Origin: a bacterium
GTDB taxonomy: Bacteria > Hydrothermota > Tepidihabitantia > SM23-42 > JAOAFX01
Assembly: GCA_036382775.1 (NCBI GenBank)
Contig: DASVHD010000033.1
Location: 1 to 42,989, forward strand
Direction of reading: 5' to 3'
DNA: 42,989 bases
The notes below the pieces were generated by a model that was not told the DNA's origin, searched no databases, and worked only from the letters and a program-made list of their open reading frames with translations. Within the stretch, counting starts at the first letter, position 1. Each line of letters opens with the position of its first letter. The translations under genes and the position numbers were made by a program. This document shows positions 13,914 to 42,989 of this stretch, piece by piece.

Positions 13914-14207
13914 ATGAAATATTGGCAGCATCCGGGCGGGAAATTACGCGACAAAGGAGCGGACACGCTTACCGATGCAGAGCTTTTAGCCATTCTTATA
14001 TCTTCTGGCATAAAGGGTAAACCAGCGGAAAAAATAGCTCAAGAAATTCTTAATCGCTTCGGTTCTTTCAAGGGTATGGCTAATCAGCCATTGAGCAAAT
14101 TACTTGAGATTAAAGGTCTGGGTGATGTAAAAACTATTAGAATCGCGGCAGCCTTTGAAATCGCCAAAAGAATAGTAGGGCAGGTAATAAAAGAGAATGA
14201 AAAGTAA
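13914..14207 (+). CDS. RadC N-terminal (helix-hairpin-helix) domain-only protein
   Basis: A 97-aa protein that matches only the N-terminal region of RadC/UPF0758: LTDAELLAILISSGIKGK, then a helix-hairpin-helix LLEIKGLGDVKTIRIAAAFE. RadC is normally about 220 aa with a C-terminal JAB/MPN metalloprotease-like domain, which is absent here. The gene has a perfect ribosome binding site and its last 11 nt overlap the type IIG gene, so it looks like a functional free-standing DNA-binding partner rather than decay. Its role with the methylase is inferred from position only. Confidence 0.82.
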   Translation: MKYWQHPGGKLRDKGADTLTDAELLAILISSGIKGKPAEKIAQEILNRFGSFKGMANQPLSKLLEIKGLGDVKTIRIAAAFEIAKRIVGQVIKENEK

Positions 14208-17200
14208 AATAAAAGGAAAAACAGCAAGAATACCAAGTCCGTTTGACACAACCATTCATAAAACAGAGCCGACGGCTGTGGCGGTTCTGATGCATTGGAT
14301 GCGAGAGATCATCGAAAAAGAAAATATTGACCTGGGGCCACCGGACGTGGAAACTACTGGAGCGGATAGGAAAAAACCGGATGCGGTCATCTATGAATCA
14401 AGGCGCAGTCAGAATGTTCTGTGCGTGATTGAGGCAAAGGCACCTTATTATGACGTCTTTGATGAAAAAGAACTGAAAAAACCTGCGTGGGAAAAAGCAA
14501 ATCAGAGAAAAGCCAGATATTTTGCCACGACTAATTTCAAGAAACTCATTTGGTTTGATACTAGAAAAACAAATGAACTTGCATCTGAAGAACAGCAAAT
14601 TGTCAATAAATATAATCTATCAGAAATCGAGAACCTCGATGAGATCGAACAAGCGAATTTCAGCGAACCCATTAAAAGAGGATTGAAAAGCTTTCTTATT
14701 GAGCTCTATGAGGTTCATAATAAGAAAAAAACAATACCAAAGCAGGCTATAGACGAGTTTTTAGTACTAAGACTTCAGGAAAAAATAAGAGTTCTTGCTA
14801 AGTATTATAAACGAATAATTGATGACAAATGCCATAAAGACACGTCGTTTAAGCAAACGCTTAAAAAATGGTTTATCGAACAAGGTTGGAATTTTACTAT
14901 GCTTGATTCGGATTTCGAAAAAGCTGCAAGGCAGACCGCTTATCTGTTAATCAACAAAATTTTATTCTATGATCTTCTTCAGGCCAAACGACCAGGCGAC
15001 CTTGACCCGCTTGATATTCCGGATAGCCTAACTAAAGGCGAATTGCTGCAGACTACGCTGCAGGGCTATTTTAAGCAAGTTTTAAAAATTGATTATGAAA
15101 CCATCTATACCACTGACTTTATTGACACTCAAGCTTTCCCCGACCAAAAGGAAGTTGTAAAAGAAATCAGGGAATTGATTAATGTTCTAAAAAGATACGA
15201 CTTTTCAAAAATAAGATATGAAATTATTGGCAGAATTTTTGAACAGCTTATTCCACCGGATGAAAGACACAACCTTGGTCAGTATTTCACAAATCCTGAT
15301 ATCGTCGATCTTATTTTGCGGTTTTGTCACCATCATGAGGATGATAAAGTCCTTGACCCGGCGTGCGGAGCCGGGACATTCCTTGTCCGTGCCTATCAGC
15401 ATAAAGTACTAATGAACCAACGAAAGGAACATCAGGACTTACTCGATACGCTCTGGGGAGTTGACATCGCTAAATTCCCGGCCCATCTCTCCACGATCAA
15501 CCTTGCAATTAATAAATTAGAGGCAGGCAAAAACTACCCTAATATTATCAAAGATGACTTCTTTGCACTGCTCATGGTGCATGATGGTTTTGAAGCGCCT
15601 GAAACCTGGCGAAAAACAAGGGCAGTCACTCTTGGTATTGAAGAAAGAGAGATCACCTATCCACGCTGGTTCGATTTGGTAATCGGCAATCCTCCTTATA
15701 CACGACAGGAAGAGATACCTGATATCGGCGTTGACAAACAAAGACTCATAGATAGCGCCTTAAAAGATCCATCGGGACGCAAAATAGCGGAAATCGGCAG
15801 GCGTGCGGGTATCCATTCATACTTCTTCGTTCACGGGACCAAATTTTTGAAAGATGGCGGGCATTTCGGTTTTATCGTATCAGATTCCTGGCTTGATGCA
15901 GATTATGGTAAAGGTTTGCAGGAGTTTTTTCTTGGCAATCATAAAATCATAGCCATCATTGCGTCCAAAATAGAGAGGTGGTTTGCAGCAGCGGACATCA
16001 ACACATGCATCGTGATACTGCAGAAATGCAAAGACAAGAAAGCGCGTGATGAGAATATCGTTCGCTTTGTTTATCTCAAAACGCCATTACGTAGTTTTAT
16101 TCCACCGGCACAGGATATGTGGGAAAAACAGGTTACGCGTCGGGATGAGGTTGATAAACTGAAAAAAACTATACTAGGACACAGCGATTTCTATGAAAAT
16201 GACGAATTAAGAATCTATCCCAAAAAACAGAATGAATTATGGGAAGAAGGATATGATCGCGAAACAAGAGACTATATCGGCTCAAAATGGGGAAAATATC
16301 TGAGGGCACCAGCGATATTCTTTAGGATATTAGAAAAAGGAAAAGGCAAACTTGTGCCATTGAAAGAAATTGCTGATGTGCGATTTGGTATTAAAACTGG
16401 TGCGAATAAATTTTTCTATTTAACCGAAGAAGAGATAAAAAACAAAAAAATTGAGAAAGAATTCTGGATGCATAAAGATAAAAAAGGCAAATGGGTACCG
16501 GATAAAGTTTTTGTGAAGGCAAATGAATTACGCAAGCCTATAGTCGAGCCTAGTTTACTCAGATATAATGTTCTCTTTATAAACAAACATAAGGAAAAAC
16601 TTAATGGAACAAACATCTTACGGTATATAAATAAGGGCCAGCAAGCAGGTTATAATCAGCGACCAACTTGTGCAACCCGTGAGCCAGGCAGACCATGGTT
16701 TGATCTTGGCGAAAACATAGACGATATTATTGCTTTTCCTGAACGTATAAGAATGCGTCATATAGTTTTTTATAATCCTGAAAGAATTGCGCTAAATAAG
16801 AATTTATACGGTGTTGAGCCCCGCACCAAAAGTGCTTCAATTTTAATTGCATTAGTATTGAATTCTACGCTAACCGCTTTTTATAGCGAGCTATTTGCCC
16901 GACAACCTGGTGGTGGAGGAGGACCATTAGACATAGATGTATATGTGGCTGCTGCAACTAATATACCATCATTGGATTGTTTGAAAAAATTCAAGAATAA
17001 AATTAGGCGAATTAAGATTTTAGACAGACCAATAGATAATATCATCGCTGAAATCGGAGCATCATCGCCCGAGAAAGCATCCCTTGATAAAATAAAACCT
17101 GACCGCAGGGAATTGGATAAGATCATCATGGGCAATATTCTTGGATTAACCGATGAAGAACAGCTTGAGGTTTATAAAGCAGTCATTGATTTGGTTAAGT

Positions 17201-17307
17201 CAAGAATTGAAAAAGCAAAAAGTGTTGAGAAGCAGGACAAAGCAAAGGACGGGGTGAATATAAATGCATTGAAAAAAATTATTGTGGAGCAAATCGAAAA
17301 GGAGTGA
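14197..17307 (+). CDS. Type IIG-like restriction endonuclease/N6-adenine methyltransferase fusion
   Basis: A 1036-aa single-chain restriction-modification enzyme. The N-terminal nuclease-like domain has a PD-(D/E)XK pattern (PDAVI with D62; IEAK with E79 and K81). A helical connector (about 150-370) precedes a gamma-class N6-adenine methyltransferase: motif I DPACGAGTF (387-395) and motif IV NPPY (498-501). The C-terminal half is a target-recognition region, including VPLKEIADVRFGIKTG (about 725-740) and a late glycine-rich PGGGGGP loop. This order matches Eco57I/MmeI-like enzymes that recognise, methylate and cut with one polypeptide. The recognition site cannot be predicted. It overlaps the RadC-like gene by 11 nt. 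It is AT-rich compared with the core genes, which suggests transfer. Confidence 0.9.
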   Translation: MKSKIKGKTARIPSPFDTTIHKTEPTAVAVLMHWMREIIEKENIDLGPPDVETTGADRKKPDAVIYESRRSQNVLCVIEAKAPYYDVFDEKELKKPAWEKANQRKARYFATTNFKKLIWFDTRKTNELASEEQQIVNKYNLSEIENLDEIEQANFSEPIKRGLKSFLIELYEVHNKKKTIPKQAIDEFLVLRLQEKIRVLAKYYKRIIDDKCHKDTSFKQTLKKWFIEQGWNFTMLDSDFEKAARQTAYLLINKILFYDLLQAKRPGDLDPLDIPDSLTKGELLQTTLQGYFKQVLKIDYETIYTTDFIDTQAFPDQKEVVKEIRELINVLKRYDFSKIRYEIIGRIFEQLIPPDERHNLGQYFTNPDIVDLILRFCHHHEDDKVLDPACGAGTFLVRAYQHKVLMNQRKEHQDLLDTLWGVDIAKFPAHLSTINLAINKLEAGKNYPNIIKDDFFALLMVHDGFEAPETWRKTRAVTLGIEEREITYPRWFDLVIGNPPYTRQEEIPDIGVDKQRLIDSALKDPSGRKIAEIGRRAGIHSYFFVHGTKFLKDGGHFGFIVSDSWLDADYGKGLQEFFLGNHKIIAIIASKIERWFAAADINTCIVILQKCKDKKARDENIVRFVYLKTPLRSFIPPAQDMWEKQVTRRDEVDKLKKTILGHSDFYENDELRIYPKKQNELWEEGYDRETRDYIGSKWGKYLRAPAIFFRILEKGKGKLVPLKEIADVRFGIKTGANKFFYLTEEEIKNKKIEKEFWMHKDKKGKWVPDKVFVKANELRKPIVEPSLLRYNVLFINKHKEKLNGTNILRYINKGQQAGYNQRPTCATREPGRPWFDLGENIDDIIAFPERIRMRHIVFYNPERIALNKNLYGVEPRTKSASILIALVLNSTLTAFYSELFARQPGGGGGPLDIDVYVAAATNIPSLDCLKKFKNKIRRIKILDRPIDNIIAEIGASSPEKASLDKIKPDRRELDKIIMGNILGLTDEEQLEVYKAVIDLVKSRIEKAKSVEKQDKAKDGVNINALKKIIVEQIEKE

Positions 17308-31916: not shown

Positions 31917-33005
31917 TCAAACAAATAATTTCATATCCACATTTTGCATACATTTTTTAATATATTTGATACTTTCTTCATTAGTGTATTTAAGAAGATC
32001 ATGCGAATAAGACAATTTTTTATATAAAATTGTGGCGATTTCCTTTACCCAATATGTCATGCTCATTTGCACTATATCGCCATTTATTGCTTTCGCCATT
32101 TCCCTAATTCTACTCCCTTCACCAATTCTATCGACAATTATTATTGTTGACATGTAGTACTTCTGTCGTCCATATTCAATTTCTCTTTCAAAACGAGATA
32201 CTTTATCTAGAGAAATTTCTGTATTACCAGGACCAATAAATCCAATATCAAATCTTGCACCGACACCTGGTTTTAATAATACTGTAGCATCGCTTTCTCT
32301 CTTATTGTTTCTTTCAGATAACCAAAATAATTTACTGCTAATGTTTTTGTTAGATTCATTTCGTATATTGAATCCTAATATTGTTAACAAAGATCCTAAA
32401 ATTAGTTTTTCAAAAAACTTTCCATACATCGATTTTTCAGAACCACGAATAGATAAAGTTTGAGTACCGATAGCTGTAAATAATTGTAATAATTCTGGCC
32501 ATTTCAGAAAATATTTTTGATTATTTTTGTCTATTAGTTCGGTTGTAATTTCTCCAAATGTATTAATAGATTCTTTAACACTTTTTTGTAAGGCTTCGTT
32601 CAAATCATTCAAATATGGTAATAATTCTGTATCATCGCTACGCAATACATTTTGTATACCCTTTCCAGTTAATCCAATAATCCAATTCAGAAATATTTTG
32701 CTTTCTTTATCAAGATGAACATTTTTTAATTCATCTGCTACAAGATCATTAAGATTATTGCAAAAATCTTCTATATTATTTAAACAATGAATATAAGTAA
32801 TAAGCATTGATGCATTCGATAAATTTAATCTTCTTCTTGTTAAGCTTTCAGTTAAAGCACGAACATTGCCTCCAGACAGAACTGATATTACGACATTTCT
32901 TATTACATCATCTCCAAGTTTATCGATAATTTCTTTGCCCGAATAATTGGAAAGGTCTTTGCCAATTTTGGGTATATAATGCGATATTGTTCGTTTTTTA
33001 TCCAT
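31917..33005 (-). CDS. Probable type II restriction endonuclease
   Basis: About 362 aa from ATG 33005; a TTG at 33020 is also in frame. The ATG overlaps the methyltransferase stop by 8 nt, the usual tight pairing of a restriction gene with its methylase. The N-terminal 190 residues are helical. The C-terminal part has ESDATVLLKPG, RFDIGFIGPGNTEIS and a strand STIIIVDRIGEGSRI, which fits a PD-(D/E)XK-like core, although the catalytic Lys is not certain. The overall size and pairing with an N4-cytosine-type methylase recall CfrBI-like systems. The call depends mainly on context. Confidence 0.72.
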   Translation of the reverse strand: MDKKRTISHYIPKIGKDLSNYSGKEIIDKLGDDVIRNVVISVLSGGNVRALTESLTRRRLNLSNASMLITYIHCLNNIEDFCNNLNDLVADELKNVHLDKESKIFLNWIIGLTGKGIQNVLRSDDTELLPYLNDLNEALQKSVKESINTFGEITTELIDKNNQKYFLKWPELLQLFTAIGTQTLSIRGSEKSMYGKFFEKLILGSLLTILGFNIRNESNKNISSKLFWLSERNNKRESDATVLLKPGVGARFDIGFIGPGNTEISLDKVSRFEREIEYGRQKYYMSTIIIVDRIGEGSRIREMAKAINGDIVQMSMTYWVKEIATILYKKLSYSHDLLKYTNEESIKYIKKCMQNVDMKLFV

Positions 33006-34197
33006 TTTTTTTATCTTCAAAGTTTAAATATTCCTGTGTCTTTGTTGGTGGTGAAGTATTGATCCAATTTATTATATCAATTTTGCCTGATGTCCAACTT
33101 ATAGATAATTTTTTTATCTCATCGACATAATGTGAATTAATTTCAAAAAGAACAAAGCGCCTATTTGTTCTAACGGCAGCCGAACCTACTGTACCGATAC
33201 CAGCAAATGGATCTAATACAACATCATTTATAAATGAATAATACTTTATTACTTTTTCAGCTAATACCAGAGGAAAGATTGCAGGATGTTTCTTAGAGTA
33301 GGATGGATGTATCTTCCAAATGTTCGTCACATCATACCCATCATCTATTTTAGAATCTTTAACATTCTTTTGATTGGGATGTTTCCTTATATGCCAATCA
33401 ATAAGTTTCTCAGTTGCTTTTCTATATACTAAAATATATTCTGTAACAGGAACTGGTTTATACTGTAAAGGATTGCGGTCCGCAGCGAACCTTCTTCCTC
33501 TCCCGGTTGCCCACCCCGCACCTTCTGGTTTTACCCATATAATATCATCAACAAATTCATAACCCACTTCATTGAATAATCGATGAAAATCAAAGGGAAC
33601 CGCAATGCGCTTCGAAGATTCATTTCTACTGGATCGTCTTATTAAAATTGGCGATATATTAATAACAAAAAATCTACCTTCGTTAAGTACTCGATGGCAT
33701 TGTTTTAGTATTCTTTTCATTTTCTCCAAATAATCATTATAAGATATATAGTCAGCATATTCCGGTCTCGCATTATAGTATGGTGGAGATGTAAAAATTA
33801 AATCTACTGATTCAGCTGGTGTCTCTTGAAGCAATACTTCGGAATCGCCCAAACCCACAGTATTACGAAGATTCGATATTTTCGGTAAATCACCATTAGA
33901 AATTCTGAATTTTTTTCTTTTTTTTCTTCCCAGTAGTCGATCTTCCAATACTTCCTTTTTTGTGGATTTGGATGTGACAATTAAGCTAGTTATAGCATCT
34001 ATTACCACCTCACCAATCATTTCATCATTACTTTTTAAGGGAACTCTCCATATATGATAGCGGTCATCAATTTCCGGCAAACCAAAATCTACAACTGTAT
34101 CTAAAGAGATATTCCTAAGATAAATTAATGCTATGCTTTTTGCCTGTTTGACATTATTAACAATATAAGTTCTACTTAGTAATTTCTTTCGTATCAT
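32998..34197 (-). CDS. Beta-class DNA methyltransferase (N4-cytosine type)
   Basis: 399 aa. Catalytic motif IV comes first, TSPPYYN (136-142); TSPPY is typical of N4-cytosine methylases. The SAM-binding motif I DPFAGIGTVGSA is near residue 340, giving the beta-class order. An additional N-terminal region (about 1-95) has no recognised fold. DIIWVKPEG and the RNPLQYKPVPVTEYILV block are typical of this group. It protects DNA from the adjacent nuclease. ATG 34197 lies 8 nt past its -10 box, so the mRNA is nearly leaderless. Confidence 0.9.
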   Translation of the reverse strand: MIRKKLLSRTYIVNNVKQAKSIALIYLRNISLDTVVDFGLPEIDDRYHIWRVPLKSNDEMIGEVVIDAITSLIVTSKSTKKEVLEDRLLGRKKRKKFRISNGDLPKISNLRNTVGLGDSEVLLQETPAESVDLIFTSPPYYNARPEYADYISYNDYLEKMKRILKQCHRVLNEGRFFVINISPILIRRSSRNESSKRIAVPFDFHRLFNEVGYEFVDDIIWVKPEGAGWATGRGRRFAADRNPLQYKPVPVTEYILVYRKATEKLIDWHIRKHPNQKNVKDSKIDDGYDVTNIWKIHPSYSKKHPAIFPLVLAEKVIKYYSFINDVVLDPFAGIGTVGSAAVRTNRRFVLFEINSHYVDEIKKLSISWTSGKIDIINWINTSPPTKTQEYLNFEDKKNG

Positions 34198-34678: not shown

Positions 34679-35281
34679 CTAACTCTTTTTTTCATGTTTT
34701 TTCTGATCGCCTTTCAGTATATCATTTAATAAATTTTTTATAATTAGCAGATATGCATTATCACGTTCATTTTTTGTTAAATTACTTGCTATTTGTATCG
34801 TTGTCAACAGTTCCTGAGTATGAATAAGTTGATCATGAAACTTATTTATCTGCTTTAGAGCTTCACTGTATAACCAAAAAAAAGAACCAGCGATAATTTC
34901 AACAATTGCCCCTGCAATTGTTGAATAGGCGATTATACTTGTTTTCTCAGGCGTCATGTATGTAATTATAACACCACCTGCAAATAAAATAAAACCTAGA
35001 AAACATATTAGCAATGCAGCAGTAAACGCACTACGAGCTTGCTGCTTGTTAATTGTATAGTACCCTGTAAGTTCAGCAACATTACGCCGCATTGCAGCTA
35101 TCACGTCATCAGGCTGACTTTCTAGCTCAGCTAATTTTATATCACTTATTTGTTTTGTTATTACTTGTTCTTGCATAATGTTCCTACTATTTACAAGCCG
35201 ACCTACAAATGTAAATATCACAATACTTGCAATTGCGCATACCAATAATATGCTGGTCAGAAATAATAGCATTGCATTCAT
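34679..35281 (-). CDS. Membrane protein with TRADD-N-associated-type domain
   Basis: 200 aa with three hydrophobic helices (about 4-26, 87-109, 115-138). The block YYTINKQQARSAF, then GFILFAGGV, then AGAIVEIIAGSFFWLYSEALKQINKFHDQL matches the two-helix membrane domain that comparative work has linked to TRADD-N domains in bacterial conflict systems. The C-terminal 60 residues are charged and helical and face the cytoplasm if the helices are oriented in the usual way. GAAAGGAG precedes ATG 35281. It is the third gene after the caspase-like protease, so a role as membrane effector or anchor is plausible but inferred. Confidence 0.7.
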   Translation of the reverse strand: MNAMLLFLTSILLVCAIASIVIFTFVGRLVNSRNIMQEQVITKQISDIKLAELESQPDDVIAAMRRNVAELTGYYTINKQQARSAFTAALLICFLGFILFAGGVIITYMTPEKTSIIAYSTIAGAIVEIIAGSFFWLYSEALKQINKFHDQLIHTQELLTTIQIASNLTKNERDNAYLLIIKNLLNDILKGDQKKHEKKS

Positions 35282-35667: not shown

Positions 35668-36735
35668 TTATTTTGTATTCAACCTTATTGTTGGGTCCCC
35701 ATATAAAACAAATTGAAGCAATGTCTTTTGATCATCATCATCCAAAAATCCATGTCGTCGTATAGATTTGCGAGCGATATCACTTTTTGCATTCTTTAGG
35801 CTTTCACCAATAGCAACACCCTGCTTGACATATTCAAAAAAGTATTTCACCAGCAAATCAGCTTCACTAGAGGGTGGTGTTGCAGGTCCATAGGCTATCG
35901 TTGTAGATCCACAAAAACATAACACGTCATTTTGGTTTAGGAATTTCAAGCTTATTGCATTTTTATCTGACTTTTTTATAATGTACGCACCATAACATGC
36001 TTCGGAAGCTACGACGCCACCTGCATTCACAACATTATCCGGCTTTAAAGCAATGGGATATTCATCACCATCCTGACCATACCAGTTTGCAGATTCATTA
36101 CTACCATGGACATTGAAATATAAGTAGTCTTTATCATTTAACCATACTGCTTTGATAAAATCACTGGTTACCGGTGGCGATACTTTTAAATCCTTAACTT
36201 TTCCTATTTGTCGATATACATTTTCTGAAGCTTTTTCCCACATTCTAGCTGTCAGCCCAAATGCTTTCCTAGTCCGATGCCCTGACTTTTTTTGGAGTAA
36301 TTTGATAATGAAGTCTGTATCTTTATTATCAGGGATACGAGCACAAATGCGCTCAGGTATTAAAAAATCATCATCTCTTGATGCGTAAGGATTATCAGAC
36401 AAAACCCATGCATCACTATCATCACATGGATTAGTCAATCGGAAAAAGGGAACAACTGCATCGCCACCGATTATCAATAATATATTTATTATCCCCCATT
36501 TTTTTTCAACATCAAGAATGAACTTACGTATTGCTTTAGCACTTTTTCTGACTGGTCTTATTTTGAATTTATTGGGTACATCATAATATAGTAAACATGT
36601 ATCATAATCAGCTCTTCTTTCAGCACAATAAACCTTGAGCACCTTTTCAAAAGCTATAATATTACTACAATTTTTTTGGAGTGCCACTTTCCCACTTAAA
36701 ATTAACATTCGCTTACAATCATTTTTTAATAACAT
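35668..36735 (-). CDS. Intracellular caspase-like (C25/clan CD) protease
   Basis: 355 aa without signal peptide or membrane helix. It carries the gingipain/caspase-type fold: LLIIGGDAVVPFF (about 86-98), SDNPYASRDDD (about 113-123) and ERICARIP (about 128-135). The catalytic His is in LYFNVHGS (H210) and the catalytic Cys in SEACYGAY (C247). FCGSTTIAYGP and YGDPTIRL close the domain. Secreted C25 enzymes have a signal peptide and propeptide; this one has neither, so it should act in the cytoplasm. First gene of a three-gene operon with a small basic protein and a TRADD-N-associated-type membrane protein. Start ATG 36735 is 6 nt past its -10 box. Confidence 0.85.
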   Translation of the reverse strand: MLLKNDCKRMLILSGKVALQKNCSNIIAFEKVLKVYCAERRADYDTCLLYYDVPNKFKIRPVRKSAKAIRKFILDVEKKWGIINILLIIGGDAVVPFFRLTNPCDDSDAWVLSDNPYASRDDDFLIPERICARIPDNKDTDFIIKLLQKKSGHRTRKAFGLTARMWEKASENVYRQIGKVKDLKVSPPVTSDFIKAVWLNDKDYLYFNVHGSNESANWYGQDGDEYPIALKPDNVVNAGGVVASEACYGAYIIKKSDKNAISLKFLNQNDVLCFCGSTTIAYGPATPPSSEADLLVKYFFEYVKQGVAIGESLKNAKSDIARKSIRRHGFLDDDDQKTLLQFVLYGDPTIRLNTK

Positions 36736-39153: not shown

Positions 39154-39498
39154 TTACTTATATTGTAGCGGTCTCAATTTACCACGCAACATTAAATCTC
39201 TATTAGAAATTTTGAAAAAACCAACACTATTTCCTACCACTAAAGCCAATACAGGAATAGCATTTTTTCTTTTCGCAGACATTACTAATTTTTTTTCATC
39301 GTCTATTGTCAACCGTGCATAAGAAATGGAAATTTTTCTTGTTGATTTTACTTGAATTGCCCACTTTCTGCGACCTTTCACTGCCATAACATCAATGGGT
39401 CCTCTACTTCCTCTTGCTATCGACCATTGATATTTACGTCTCTTAAGAAACTCACCGACTTGAAATTCTTTTCTTCTTCCATACTGGTAATGAGACAT
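39154..39498 (-). CDS. Hjc-like PD-(D/E)XK nuclease
   Basis: 114 aa. It resembles archaeal Holliday-junction resolvase Hjc and small restriction-like nucleases: GRRKEFQVGEFLKRR with an early Glu, IARGSRGPIDVMAV with the active-site Asp, then AIQVKSTR, where Gln replaces the usual Glu of E-x-K. Substitution by Gln is known in some active PD-(D/E)XK families. The last gene of a four-gene minus-strand operon, it starts 14 nt after the Mrr-like gene stop with GGAGG before the ATG. Confidence 0.8.
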   Translation of the reverse strand: MSHYQYGRRKEFQVGEFLKRRKYQWSIARGSRGPIDVMAVKGRRKWAIQVKSTRKISISYARLTIDDEKKLVMSAKRKNAIPVLALVVGNSVGFFKISNRDLMLRGKLRPLQYK

Positions 39499-39512
39499 TC
39501 ATACCTCCAAAC

Positions 39513-40376
39513 CTAAGATCTATTAGTCCATCTTGAAATAAATAATTCTTTATTGAATTTTAACTCCCCCTTTTTATCTTGCGAAAACCAATTTTTATCA
39601 ATAGGTAATTTAGTAAGATCCTCTATAATCTGTTCACCATTTTTTAATATTATCCATTCTTTTTGAGCAAAATTTGCAGCCCTCCGCGTGAATGATGAGG
39701 TAGCATAAAATATGCCCAAAATAGGCCCTTCGTTTTTCGTGAACCAAATGGGCAAATCGACTTGCCCATTTCTTGTTTCGTCATAGTATGTCTTGAATGA
39801 TCGAACCAAACCTGGCTCTACTTTTTTTGAGTATCGTTTTGCTTGTCCAATTACTTTTATCTGATATTTTTTGGGAATAATTCCCAATGAGATTTCTTTG
39901 TCGATATTATATAAACCGATAAAGTCTATTCCTTCTTGATTCGTTTTGGTCTGTTTTACTGGATTCACACCAGAAATCTTTAGTAAATCAACACATAGTT
40001 TTTCAAATCCCTGCCAAGGCATACTACACATTGTTCTTAAAATAGTTGCTCTACATTTTCTGAAATTTGCCAACCAAAGACTTTCATTATGTATGAGGCT
40101 ATAGCTAATAATCATGTGCGGTAGTGACTCACACAGTTCATACTCAGCTCCTACGCCTCTGGAATCGCAAACTTCCTTTCGCGTTACAAAATATGATTCA
40201 ACCTTTGGTAGTATATCATCAAGACTATCTGTGATTTCAAGTGGGCTTTGTCCAGGATACATTTTCTCTATTTTCTTGGTGCAATAGTCTTTGAGATTAA
40301 TTTTATCCTCTTTCATCTTCATTATTTCATCGTACACCTCTCTTGCTACTTTTACAGTTGGCAAATTAATACTCAT
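39513..40376 (-). CDS. Mrr-like restriction endonuclease
   Basis: 287 aa. The N-terminal 110 residues are of unknown type. The Mrr_cat-like domain (about 115-265) has WQGFEKLCVDLL with the helix Glu, QEGIDFIG with the catalytic Asp, VIGQAKRYSKKVEPGLVRSF with Q-x-K, and ATSSFTRRAANFA, all typical of Mrr/type IV-like nucleases. Mrr proteins often cut modified DNA. The start is 4 nt after the ParB-like gene stop; AAGGAAATGAAG acts as ribosome binding site. Confidence 0.87.
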   Translation of the reverse strand: MSINLPTVKVAREVYDEIMKMKEDKINLKDYCTKKIEKMYPGQSPLEITDSLDDILPKVESYFVTRKEVCDSRGVGAEYELCESLPHMIISYSLIHNESLWLANFRKCRATILRTMCSMPWQGFEKLCVDLLKISGVNPVKQTKTNQEGIDFIGLYNIDKEISLGIIPKKYQIKVIGQAKRYSKKVEPGLVRSFKTYYDETRNGQVDLPIWFTKNEGPILGIFYATSSFTRRAANFAQKEWIILKNGEQIIEDLTKLPIDKNWFSQDKKGELKFNKELFISRWTNRS

Positions 40377-40380
40377 GACT

Positions 40381-41523
40381 TCATTTCCTTGTGAGATTAT
40401 TTATTTGTAGGCGTGATGTGTTAATCATCTTTCTTAATATCTCGACAAGATTGACTCTCTGGAGTCTTTCTTCCTTCGATTTAGGTGACTGTAATTTAGG
40501 TATCGGTAGTGTATTTATGACTTGTTCTGCATCACGTAAATGCTTGATAATATCTGTGATATCAATTGGCATTCTTTTTGTTTCTTCTTGATGGAGTTCG
40601 TTTGCACATTGAATAAGATTAAGTTCACCATTACTGAACTTATCAAACAGCTTTTTGTATTCTGGCTGTACGAGCTTTGCTAATGTGTCTCGGGTAGTTG
40701 GAGAAATATCAATCCTTGGTTTTACGTCTTCTTGAGATGTTGCCCAAGAAAGATACTTTCTCAAATTATCAGTCTTAGTAAATTTGCGGGATGTATCATC
40801 CCAACCTAACCATATCTTCAATCCTTCTTTTACCATAATTATTTCATCAAAATGCCCAAATTTGTCTGGCGTGAGCATATCACCATATTCATCATCTTGT
40901 TTTGCCTGTTCAAATGCATAATATGAACGAATCAAGTGTGTAAGTTCCTTAGCAGGTTTTATTCCAAAAAGTGAAGCAATATCTTGCAACTCTTTACTAC
41001 TCGCTTTTTCGAAATCTGCAAAAAATTTTGCTTTCGGGTACCGTTCCCAAGACTTGATACCAGGCGTATGTCTAAAACCTTGAATAATCCAGGCAATATC
41101 GGGATTACTACCCGTGTATTTCAATGCCTCAAATTTTTCTATGCCGCCAATTATCTGCTTAGCCAGTGTTTTGATTCCTTTTTCATGATTTTCCTTTAGG
41201 GTTTTGAGTGCTGCAACTCTTCTGTTGCCTTCAACAACAACATATTTATCAGCAACCAGTGGCCTTAATACAATTCTATCAACGATCCAAAAGCCAGAAG
41301 TGCTTATGCTTTCAGTTAAATCCACAATACCCTTACTTTTTATTTGACTCATATATTCGTTCTGTATATTAGGTTCAACTATTCTACTATCTAATATTTT
41401 CTCTTTTCCAGGAATTTCGAGTCTGGGATTATTAGGATCAAGATAGATTTGTTCTATCTTTACTCTTTCTACTTTCATATTTAATAGTTCGGCGTAAATT
41501 GTTGTTTCCTTATTTCTTGGCAT
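40381..41523 (-). CDS. ParB-like (Srx/ParB-fold) protein
   Basis: 380 aa. Residues about 20-125 form a ParB/Srx-like domain: IYLDPNNPRL, IVDLTESISTSGF, then VVVEGNRRVAALKTL, the phosphate-binding box shared by ParB CTPases and related DNA-modification proteins. The remaining 250 residues are helical and not recognised. There is no ParA partner and no plasmid gene nearby, so chromosome partition is unlikely. Similar domains occur in DNA-modification and restriction systems. GAGGAGG precedes the ATG. Confidence 0.8.
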   Translation of the reverse strand: MPRNKETTIYAELLNMKVERVKIEQIYLDPNNPRLEIPGKEKILDSRIVEPNIQNEYMSQIKSKGIVDLTESISTSGFWIVDRIVLRPLVADKYVVVEGNRRVAALKTLKENHEKGIKTLAKQIIGGIEKFEALKYTGSNPDIAWIIQGFRHTPGIKSWERYPKAKFFADFEKASSKELQDIASLFGIKPAKELTHLIRSYYAFEQAKQDDEYGDMLTPDKFGHFDEIIMVKEGLKIWLGWDDTSRKFTKTDNLRKYLSWATSQEDVKPRIDISPTTRDTLAKLVQPEYKKLFDKFSNGELNLIQCANELHQEETKRMPIDITDIIKHLRDAEQVINTLPIPKLQSPKSKEERLQRVNLVEILRKMINTSRLQINNLTRK

Positions 41524-41583
41524 GAAGCACCTCCTCTTATATTTTCGTTATCCTTAATGTTGTACTAATATCTTTGATCTTCA

Positions 41584-42717
41584 TCATTTATTCTTCTTTT
41601 TCTTTTTTTTGTCGCTTTCATAAATCTTACACATTTTTTCCTTAAATTCCTTGGCGTTTTTTCCGAAAAGAGCTGTGAATGCTTCGCGATTTCTTCTAAT
41701 CATTCCGTAAGAGTAAAAGAACATTAAACACAGTTTTACAGCGCGAAGTATAGGTTTTTCCCAACGGGGTGATACAAAGTGATTTTCAATACTATTAATA
41801 GATCGATATCGCATTGGATAAGATAATACACCAAGTTTGTTCAATTCATTTATTCGATAGAAAAAATAATCCGGTGTATCATTAGGATCTTCTGAATTAT
41901 ATAAAACATAAACTCTGATATCATTAAATCCAATTTTTTCTGCTGTTTTTATCGCGGATTGTATATACCCCTCTTCTGAATGATTATCGAAAGCAAAACG
42001 TAAAGGTTTGATTCTTACTGTTGATAATAATTTGGCTTTTTCTTTGTCAAAAAGCCTGCAATCCAAACCTTGATTGAAATCAAATATTTTGTTAAGACGC
42101 TTTAAATTTTCGACATCAGTCACAAATCGTGGCGAAAACAACCAATTATTATCCCAAAAAATAATCCTCTCTTTTGAAATATCTATATCTTTTTCCCAAT
42201 CTTCTTTAATAAAAAATTGTGGTTCGTGACATCTAACTGCGCAAAACATGCATTTTCTTTTGCATCCTCTCGACGTAAATGTTATTGAACACCGTAACTT
42301 AGGAAATAACGAATAATCTGGAGCAACATGTTCAGCACCGTCTAAAAGACCAAGATGGGGGTTTATACCCGTTTGCTCTTTTATGACGTTTGGTAGCAAA
42401 GTGGCAAATATACCCCCAACTTTAATTTCAGCATGTGGATATTGCGATTGAAAATGTTTGATAGATTCTATAACTGTGATTGCATGATAAGTGAATAATG
42501 TTGTTATGTATATTTTGTCATAATTTTTTTTGAGTTTAACCTGATTACTACCAAAAAAGTCATGGTTATTATTATTGTCCTTTATGAAATCAACAACATC
42601 TCCTTTGTTTTTATGCCAAGTAGATATTTTCATTAATCCTAAAGGAGGATAGTGACTCTCATACCCAGGTTCAATCAATAAAATATTCTTTCTCTTATGA
42701 TGTCGTTTCAATATCAT
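41584..42717 (-). CDS. Radical SAM protein with B12-binding-like N-terminus
   Basis: About 377 aa; start ATG 42717 (GTG 42723 is also open). The radical SAM cluster motif CxxxCxxC lies at C154, C158 and C161 (TSRGCKRKCMFC). The N-terminal 140 residues (LLIEPGYESHYPPLGLMKIS, KVGGIFATLLP) look like a cobalamin-binding-type Rossmann fold, although the His of DxHxxG is not visible. The C-terminus ends in a Lys-rich tail. The reaction is unknown. It is first in the operon with the ParB-like, Mrr-like and Hjc-like genes, with a 60-nt gap to the ParB-like gene. Confidence 0.87.
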   Translation of the reverse strand: MILKRHHKRKNILLIEPGYESHYPPLGLMKISTWHKNKGDVVDFIKDNNNNHDFFGSNQVKLKKNYDKIYITTLFTYHAITVIESIKHFQSQYPHAEIKVGGIFATLLPNVIKEQTGINPHLGLLDGAEHVAPDYSLFPKLRCSITFTSRGCKRKCMFCAVRCHEPQFFIKEDWEKDIDISKERIIFWDNNWLFSPRFVTDVENLKRLNKIFDFNQGLDCRLFDKEKAKLLSTVRIKPLRFAFDNHSEEGYIQSAIKTAEKIGFNDIRVYVLYNSEDPNDTPDYFFYRINELNKLGVLSYPMRYRSINSIENHFVSPRWEKPILRAVKLCLMFFYSYGMIRRNREAFTALFGKNAKEFKEKMCKIYESDKKKKKKNK

Positions 42718-42723
42718 TGTCAC

Positions 42724-42918: not shown

Positions 42919-42989
42919 ATGAACCGCAAGATTTGGACGCTCGAGGAAAAGCTTGGGGTGGTATTGGCGATGTTAAAGGGCGAGGAATC
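42919..42989 (+). CDS. IS3-type transposase OrfA, N-terminus only
   Basis: The frame starting MNRKIWTLEEKLGVVLAMLK is open to the right edge (about 23 codons). K/RxWTxEEKLxxVLxxLKGEE is the usual start of the helix-turn-helix OrfA protein of IS3-like elements. The rest lies outside the window, so family assignment is tentative. Confidence 0.65.
   Translation, partial: MNRKIWTLEEKLGVVLAMLKGEE

What the first reader, a model, noticed from the sequence alone, without database searches (positions are those of the whole stretch)
39154..42723. Radical SAM-ParB-Mrr-Hjc operon: possible DNA modification/restriction system
Four minus-strand genes with small gaps (60, 4 and 14 nt): a radical SAM enzyme, a ParB-fold protein without ParA, an Mrr-type nuclease and an Hjc-type nuclease. 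Combining a radical SAM enzyme with two PD-(D/E)XK nucleases suggests chemical marking of DNA plus cleavage of DNA with or without the mark, by analogy with phosphorothioate and deazaguanine systems. The specific combination is not one I recognise.
Basis: partly seen in the sequence, partly recalled or inferred. Interest (0 to 1): 0.7.

Follow-up and report, generated by a model that had tools for sequence, protein, structure and literature searches.

The report
Radical-SAM-linked ParB–nuclease defence cassette
A four-gene cassette in an uncultured bacterium pairs a known type of DNA-cutting defence module (ParB-like protein plus Mrr nuclease) with a radical SAM enzyme in the position where relatives keep a DNA-marking enzyme, which hints that radical chemistry may be used to mark 'self' DNA; the marking itself is not shown.

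Summary
In detail: four minus-strand genes (rSAM, ParB-fold, Mrr, small Hjc-like) with gaps of 60, 4 and 14 nt, in a low-GC island next to a CfrBI-type R-M pair. They are not one conserved operon. ParB–Mrr is the conserved core. More distant relatives (ParB–PD-(D/E)XK pairs in P2-like phages and Chloroflexota) carry a DNA methyltransferase next door in 42 of 43 loci. Of 11 close ParB–Mrr loci with readable flanks, 7 stand alone, one has an N4/N6 methylase and two have an rSAM; a twelfth sits by dndCDE. The two rSAM cases are this window and a Nitrososphaerota archaeon, where a DndB/DpdB-like protein sits beside the rSAM. Their rSAMs belong to different clades, so the association arose twice. 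The rSAM family recurs beside ParB-fold, DndB/DpdB-like and GHKL proteins and models as a cobalamin-type (class B) rSAM. Best reading: a restriction cassette of the PD-λ-5/ParB–nuclease kind with an rSAM in the modification slot. Main doubts: most close ParB–Mrr pairs lack any modification gene, and the window rSAM's nearest relatives sit with a GHKL ATPase, not ParB–Mrr. The Hjc-like gene is unique to this locus. The marking chemistry is untested.

The parts
41584..42723 (-). Radical SAM enzyme, 379 aa: N-terminal B12-binding-like Rossmann domain, rSAM barrel, C-terminal helical part. Proposed modification enzyme
42241..42264 (-). CxxxCxxC motif (C154, C158, C161) for the [4Fe-4S] cluster, invariant in 40 family members
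   Evidence: coordinates
40381..41523 (-). ParB/Srx-fold protein, 380 aa (PDC-M38A / PD-Lambda-5_A N-domain family); model resembles CTP-binding ParB/Noc/KorB
41218..41232 (-). EGNRR (residues 98-102), ParB P-motif/Box II, invariant in 25 relatives
39513..40376 (-). Mrr_cat nuclease, 287 aa, directly downstream of this ParB family in its close relatives
39837..39926 (-). PD-(D/E)XK core D151...Q178-x-K180 (with E125), D/Q/K invariant in 12 relatives
39154..39498 (-). Small Hjc/YraN-like PD-(D/E)XK protein, 114 aa; accessory, no relative found in 147 genomes of the phylum or next to other ParB–Mrr pairs
39346..39393 (-). Putative nuclease core D36...Q49-V-K51 of the Hjc-like protein
   Evidence: sequence
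42919..42989 (+). Start of an IS-orfA-like reading frame (MNRKIWTLEEKLGVVLAMLKGEE) cut by the contig end; boundary, not part of the cassette

Best explanation
A restriction-type anti-phage cassette carried on a laterally acquired island. ParB and Mrr form the cutting half: the ParB-fold protein (NTP-binding N-domain plus helix-turn-helix-like middle domain) loads onto or scans DNA and licenses the Mrr PD-(D/E)XK nuclease. The radical SAM enzyme, a class B/cobalamin-type fold, takes the place of the DNA-modification enzyme that relatives carry (m5C, m6A or N4/N6 methylases, or dndCDE) and marks host DNA by C-H chemistry, for example a C-methylation, so that ParB–Mrr spares self and cuts unmarked DNA. 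The Hjc-like protein is an accessory nuclease gained locally. Shown: gene identities, the conserved ParB–nuclease pairing, exchange of modification partner across relatives, recurrent placement of this rSAM family beside ParB/DndB/DpdB-like genes, and the rSAM and ParB folds as models. Inferred: that the rSAM acts on DNA, that the mark protects, and the division of labour. Not known: the chemical product and the target sequence.
For: ParB–Mrr adjacency in relatives from WOR-3, Nitrososphaerota, Anaerolineae/Chloroflexi and prophages; in the phylum ParB and Mrr occur in the same 2 of 147 genomes and no others. Catalytic residues kept. The more distant partner 'P300' is related to this Mrr by profile comparison (E 2e-5). 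P300-type pairs have a C5 or D12 methylase within 1.5 kb in 42 of 43 distinct loci with readable flanks. Mrr-type pairs: N4/N6 methylase in an archaeon (L139), a cysteine desulfurase plus DndE/D/C in a Chloroflexota genome (L140), DndB/DpdB-like + rSAM in an archaeon (L116). The window and L116 rSAMs fall in different clades, so the pairing arose twice. rSAM family neighbours over 87 distinct loci: DndB-like gene at -1 in 6, ParB at -1 in 12, GHKL at +1 in 7, against 0-3 at most other positions. PD-λ-5, which shares the ParB family, is experimentally anti-phage and described as a compact RM+Abi system (PMC9519451). Low-GC island with other R-M genes. rSAM model closest to class B enzymes TsrM, AprD4, MgmA, MiaB.
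Against: 7 of 11 Mrr-type pairs with readable flanks have no modification gene within 1.5 kb. The rSAM's closest relatives (62%, 47-48%, 45%) lie with a GHKL ATPase and not with ParB–Mrr, so it may belong to a different system; that GHKL, the 315-aa partner and DndB were not found in this genome, though only the DndB search had positive controls. A 60-nt gap separates rSAM and ParB. The phage ParB–rSAM cases are essentially one clade, so the count of 12 is not independent. The archaeal ParB reading frame is broken near its N-terminus. No DNA-recognition domain was identified in the rSAM. Class B rSAMs are known to act on peptides, proteins, tRNA and small molecules; I know of none shown to act on DNA.
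Confidence: 0.42

Rival explanations
1. ParB–Mrr is a self-contained anti-phage effector that needs no partner modification gene: it senses modified or otherwise foreign DNA (Type IV-like), or is triggered through NTP binding by ParB. The rSAM is a neighbour from another defence system (GHKL-type) brought together in the same mobile island.
For: 7 of 11 Mrr-type pairs with readable flanks stand alone, including four loci on viral contigs, one of them among tail-morphogenesis genes (L246), and three Anaerolineae/Chloroflexi loci between ABC-transporter genes. Nearest rSAM relatives sit with GHKL ATPase, not ParB–Mrr. 60-nt gap; IS element at the contig end.
Against: Two rSAMs from different clades beside ParB–Mrr (window and L116) is hard to explain by chance placement; homologous P300-type pairs almost always have a modification enzyme; the genome holds no GHKL or 315-aa partner detectable with single-protein queries. 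No Mrr_N domain found.
Confidence: 0.33
2. The rSAM marks incoming phage DNA or RNA, or makes a small-molecule antiviral, and ParB–Mrr cleaves what is marked (mark-and-destroy), rather than marking self.
For: Mrr-type nucleases include modification-dependent enzymes (established knowledge); the best restriction-enzyme hit of the Mrr profile in the PDB is 4f0p, annotated only as restriction endonuclease, which I recall as the modification-dependent MspJI, at E 0.1 (not significant).
Against: Partners of homologous pairs are self-marking enzymes (methylases, Dnd); no known precedent for an enzyme that marks foreign DNA only.
Confidence: 0.1
3. The rSAM is a metabolic or RNA-modifying enzyme (MiaB/RimO-like) unrelated to defence.
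For: Profile hits to RimO at E about 1e-3 and MiaB at 0.07 and a structural match to MiaB.
Against: No NCBIfam family reaches its cut-off; no MiaB-type family reported by Pfam; family members sit beside DNA-modification and defence genes or phage packaging genes.
Confidence: 0.1

Closest known systems
PD-λ-5 (Vassallo et al. 2022, PMC9519451)
   Same: ParB N-domain family (PD-Lambda-5_A 4.2e-14); two-part ParB + modification-gene logic; experimentally anti-phage, described as a compact RM+Abi system
   Different: PD-λ-5_A models are mostly about 430-610 positions and the partner is a D12 methylase; here ParB is 380 aa with a separate Mrr nuclease and an rSAM instead of a methylase
ParB–P300–C5/D12 methylase loci of P2-like phages (e.g. 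Wphi gp98–gp96–Mth) and Chloroflexota; PADLOC candidate PDC-M38A
   Same: ParB family (PDC-M38A 9.2e-44), adjacent PD-(D/E)XK-type partner related to this Mrr
   Different: Methylase present in 42 of 43 loci; none here next to the pair
DndBCDE and Dpd (DpdA/DpdB) DNA-modification systems
   Same: ParB-superfamily protein beside a non-methylase DNA-modification enzyme; in L116 and alphaproteobacterial plasmids the rSAM itself sits next to a DndB/DpdB-like protein
   Different: No DndB (PF14072) found in this genome; none of the window genes near the cassette that were scanned matched Dnd or Dpd models
Class B radical SAM enzymes (TsrM, AprD4, MgmA, MiaB)
   Same: B12-binding-like Rossmann domain plus rSAM barrel in the model
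   Different: 10-13% identity, TM about 0.5-0.66; substrates of those are amino acids/peptides, sugars, protein or tRNA; cobalamin binding untested here
Mrr / Type IV restriction nucleases
   Same: Mrr_cat domain with D...QxK core
   Different: No Mrr_N domain detected; ParB partner gene in all relatives seen

Membership tests
PD-λ-5 | Component A with ParB N-domain and a long C-terminal part (models mostly about 430-610 positions) | tested here: not met
   ParB N-domain matches (residues 22-221, 4.2e-14), but the protein is 380 aa and the C-terminal part does not match
PD-λ-5 | Component B: adjacent D12-type DNA methylase | tested here: not met
   No D12 methylase adjacent; nearest methylase is the N4/N6 enzyme of the CfrBI-type pair, 5.3 kb away
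ParB–PD-(D/E)XK–modification systems (Wphi gp98/gp96/Mth type) | ParB gene immediately followed by a PD-(D/E)XK-type gene | tested here: met
   4-nt gap; same order in the close relatives; partner families related at E 2e-5
ParB–PD-(D/E)XK–modification systems (Wphi gp98/gp96/Mth type) | Neighbouring DNA-modification gene | tested here: inconclusive
   rSAM occupies the place; whether it modifies DNA is unknown
Dnd phosphorothioation | DndC/D/E and DndB | tested here: not met
   DndB not found in the genome by PF14072 with working controls; DndC/D/E looked for only among the scanned window proteins, none matched
Dpd 7-deazaguanine system | DpdA (TGT) and DpdB | tested here: inconclusive
   DpdB-type PF14072 not found in the genome; DpdA was not searched genome-wide
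Radical SAM superfamily | CxxxCxxC cluster motif in a TIM-like barrel | tested here: met
   Invariant in 40 members; model pLDDT 93
Cobalamin-dependent (class B) radical SAM | N-terminal B12-binding domain that binds cobalamin | tested here: inconclusive
   Weak B12-binding Pfam hit and a structural match to TsrM; AprD4, to my knowledge cobalamin-free, matches too
Mrr nucleases | Mrr_cat domain with catalytic D and QxK | tested here: met
   PF04471 48 bits against cut-off 21; D151/Q178/K180 invariant in 12 relatives
Archaeal Hjc resolvase | Score above the curated family cut-off | tested here: not met
   17.5 against 21.1 (Pfam), 20.4 against 70 (NCBIfam)
ParAB partition | Neighbouring ParA | tested here: not met
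   No ParA among the neighbouring ORFs scanned

The most novel reading that the evidence does not exclude
A restriction-modification system whose protective mark is put on DNA by a radical SAM (possibly cobalamin-dependent, C-methylating) enzyme, and more widely a family of DNA-modifying radical SAM enzymes in phages, plasmids and archaea that pair with ParB/DndB/DpdB-like proteins.
Probability: 0.38. Interest if true: 0.87.

Novelty: new variant of a known kind. Interest (0 to 1): 0.62.

Why it matters
Known self-marks of host defence systems are methylation, phosphorothioation and 7-deazaguanines. A radical SAM marker would add a new chemistry and give a testable function to a large unassigned phage and plasmid enzyme family: 450 candidate stretches in IMG/VR passed the tblastn check. 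Independently of the rSAM, the work joins PD-λ-5, the Wphi gp98/gp96/Mth loci and the ParB–Mrr pairs into one ParB–nuclease family with exchangeable modification partners, which gives clear experiments in laboratory strains.

Tried and rejected
Single-protein viral scan with the rSAM found nothing; ParB and Mrr tblastn against plasmids and Mrr against phages found nothing. BLASTP of the window Mrr against phage partners showed no similarity; only profile comparison did. A four-gene conserved operon was rejected: the Hjc-like gene is unique and the rSAM is separate in its nearest relatives. Partition function rejected: no ParA, nuclease partner. The G945 archaeal hits were contig-broken fragments of no use. 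Two alignments were too diverse to scan with. I considered, without weight, that the CfrBI-type methylase protects against ParB–Mrr; it has its own restriction enzyme. The literature library held no paper that I found joining radical SAM with ParB–Mrr or with DGQHR/DndB in defence; Iyer et al. 2013 on base modification was not held, so an earlier prediction there cannot be excluded.
Full report
OBSERVATION. The window is a whole contig of a 3.06-Mb, 51-contig genome. From about 30 kb the GC content falls from 48-58% over most of the left part to 31-36%; the low-GC part also carries a CfrBI-type restriction enzyme and its methylase. The cassette therefore lies in what looks like an acquired defence island. 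The contig ends 266 nt upstream of the rSAM inside an IS-orfA-like frame, so nothing can be said of the next gene. The genome's nearest ParB–Mrr relative within its phylum, G130, encodes the same matches as a record titled candidate division WOR-3, so the host is probably of that phylum (inference).

THE PROTEINS. The rSAM (379 aa) keeps CxxxCxxC in all 40 family members aligned. Its AlphaFold2 model (pLDDT 93) matches class B radical SAM structures best: TsrM E 4e-11, AprD4, MgmA, MiaB, CysS. Pfam gives weak B12-binding and Radical_SAM hits. No NCBIfam family comes near its cut-off, so it is in no family with a curated product. The ParB-fold protein has an invariant EGNRR in 25 relatives, corresponding to the Box II motif whose arginine is needed for NTP binding in this fold (PMC12704722). 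Its model (pLDDT 88) matches Noc, ParB and KorB. Mrr has the D151...Q178-x-K180 core, invariant in 12 relatives. The Hjc-like protein is below every curated cut-off and has no relative in 147 genomes of the phylum.

THE CORE IS ParB–Mrr. A scan of 84,980 species' genomes with the ParB profile returned seven loci; in the six close ones ParB is directly followed by Mrr. In the window's phylum ParB and Mrr occur in the same two of 147 genomes. More distant ParBs in P2-like phages, prophages and Chloroflexota are followed by a roughly 300-aa protein (P300) whose profile aligns with Mrr over the D...QxK core (E 2e-5, probability 77%); direct BLASTP did not detect this.

MODIFICATION PARTNERS. Among 56 distinct ParB–nuclease loci, P300-type pairs have a C5 (33) or D12 (9) methylase within 1.5 kb in 42 of 43 loci with readable flanks, usually convergent and nearly touching. 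Mrr-type pairs, the window's own type, are less regular. Counting the window, whose upstream flank is only 1.5 kb, 10 in that count have readable flanks and one further locus, L140, was left out of the count because its ParB frame is split; that makes 11. Seven have no modification gene within 1.5 kb, one has an N4/N6 methylase (L139, archaeon), one has DndB/DpdB-like + rSAM (L116, archaeon), one is the window, and L140 has a convergent cysteine desulfurase–DndE–DndD–DndC set. The summary and other fields speak of 11 loci plus a twelfth; read them as 10 plus L140. PD-λ-5, a tested anti-phage system described as a compact RM+Abi (PMC9519451), has the same ParB N-domain family with a longer C-terminus plus a D12 methylase.

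THE rSAM. In L116 (Nitrososphaerota) ParB (33%) and Mrr (23%) are convergent with a DndB/DpdB-like protein (PF14072 57.3 bits, cut-off 29.1; PADLOC DpdB 1.4e-11) and an rSAM 34% identical to this one. The archaeal ParB frame is broken near its start. Over 87 distinct rSAM loci a DndB-like gene sits at -1 in 6, a ParB at -1 in 12, and a GHKL ATPase at +1 in 7, against 0-3 at most other positions. Alphaproteobacterial plasmids carry DndB-like–rSAM–GHKL. Phages carry ParB_N–rSAM, in most cases followed by terminase genes. The tree qualifies these counts: the phage ParB–rSAM cases on it are one clade, while DndB and GHKL links occur on several branches. It also shows that the window rSAM groups with three GHKL-linked relatives (support 100/100) and that L116 lies in another clade. 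The rSAM/ParB–Mrr link was therefore made twice. That is evidence of functional affinity, but also of a loose, shuffling association. The genome shows no DndB by PF14072 with working controls, and no hit to the GHKL or 315-aa partner with single-protein queries, which had no positive control.

MECHANISM. Best supported (0.42): the rSAM marks host DNA, and ParB, an NTP-dependent DNA-binding clamp or scanner by fold, directs Mrr to unmarked DNA. Shown here are the module structure and the exchange of modification partners. Inferred are the rSAM's substrate, the protective sense of the mark and ParB's role. The main rival (0.33) is a self-sufficient ParB–Mrr effector with an rSAM neighbour; the seven stand-alone pairs keep it strong.

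NOVELTY. The cutting half is a new member of a known kind. The rSAM in the modification place was found in no paper that I reached in the held library, a limited library; one likely source (Iyer et al. 2013) was not held. I rate it a new variant of a known kind, with a real chance (0.38) of being a new DNA-marking chemistry.

Noticed in passing
window 31917-34197 (-): CfrBI-type restriction enzyme (PF09516 67.9 bits) and its N4/N6 methylase, overlapping ends, in the same low-GC island.
   Followed up: partly
window 14197-17307 (+): 1036-aa Type IIG-like restriction-methylase (PADLOC 6.5e-36, Eco57I/N6_Mtase) in a second low-GC patch (14-18 kb, 36-40% GC), followed by two small proteins without matches.
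   Followed up: no
window 35668-36735 (-): Peptidase C25-family domain protein above the Pfam cut-off (30.5 bits against 23), near a CyanoTRADD-associated TM protein (34679-35281).
   Followed up: no
L149 4903-10795: Around the closest rSAM (62%): GHKL ATPase, 315-aa unknown, rSAM, SPL-like second rSAM (PF20903), TcmP-like protein (PADLOC candidate PDC-M30A 8e-60). Looks like a distinct uncharacterised defence cluster.
   Followed up: partly
L041, L042, L043, L046: Alphaproteobacterial plasmids with DndB/DpdB-like – rSAM – GHKL ATPase, some with ParB, helicase or PIN genes near: a probable uncharacterised modification/defence system in cultured strains.
   Followed up: partly
L161-L166, L171, L177, L180, L183: Phage genes in order ParB_N protein – rSAM, mostly followed by terminase genes, resembling the place of ParB–methylase fusions in other phages.
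   Followed up: partly
L140 6995-14264: ParB–Mrr convergent with a dnd set (cysteine desulfurase, DndE, DndD, DndC): possible restriction partner for phosphorothioation other than DndFGH.
   Followed up: partly
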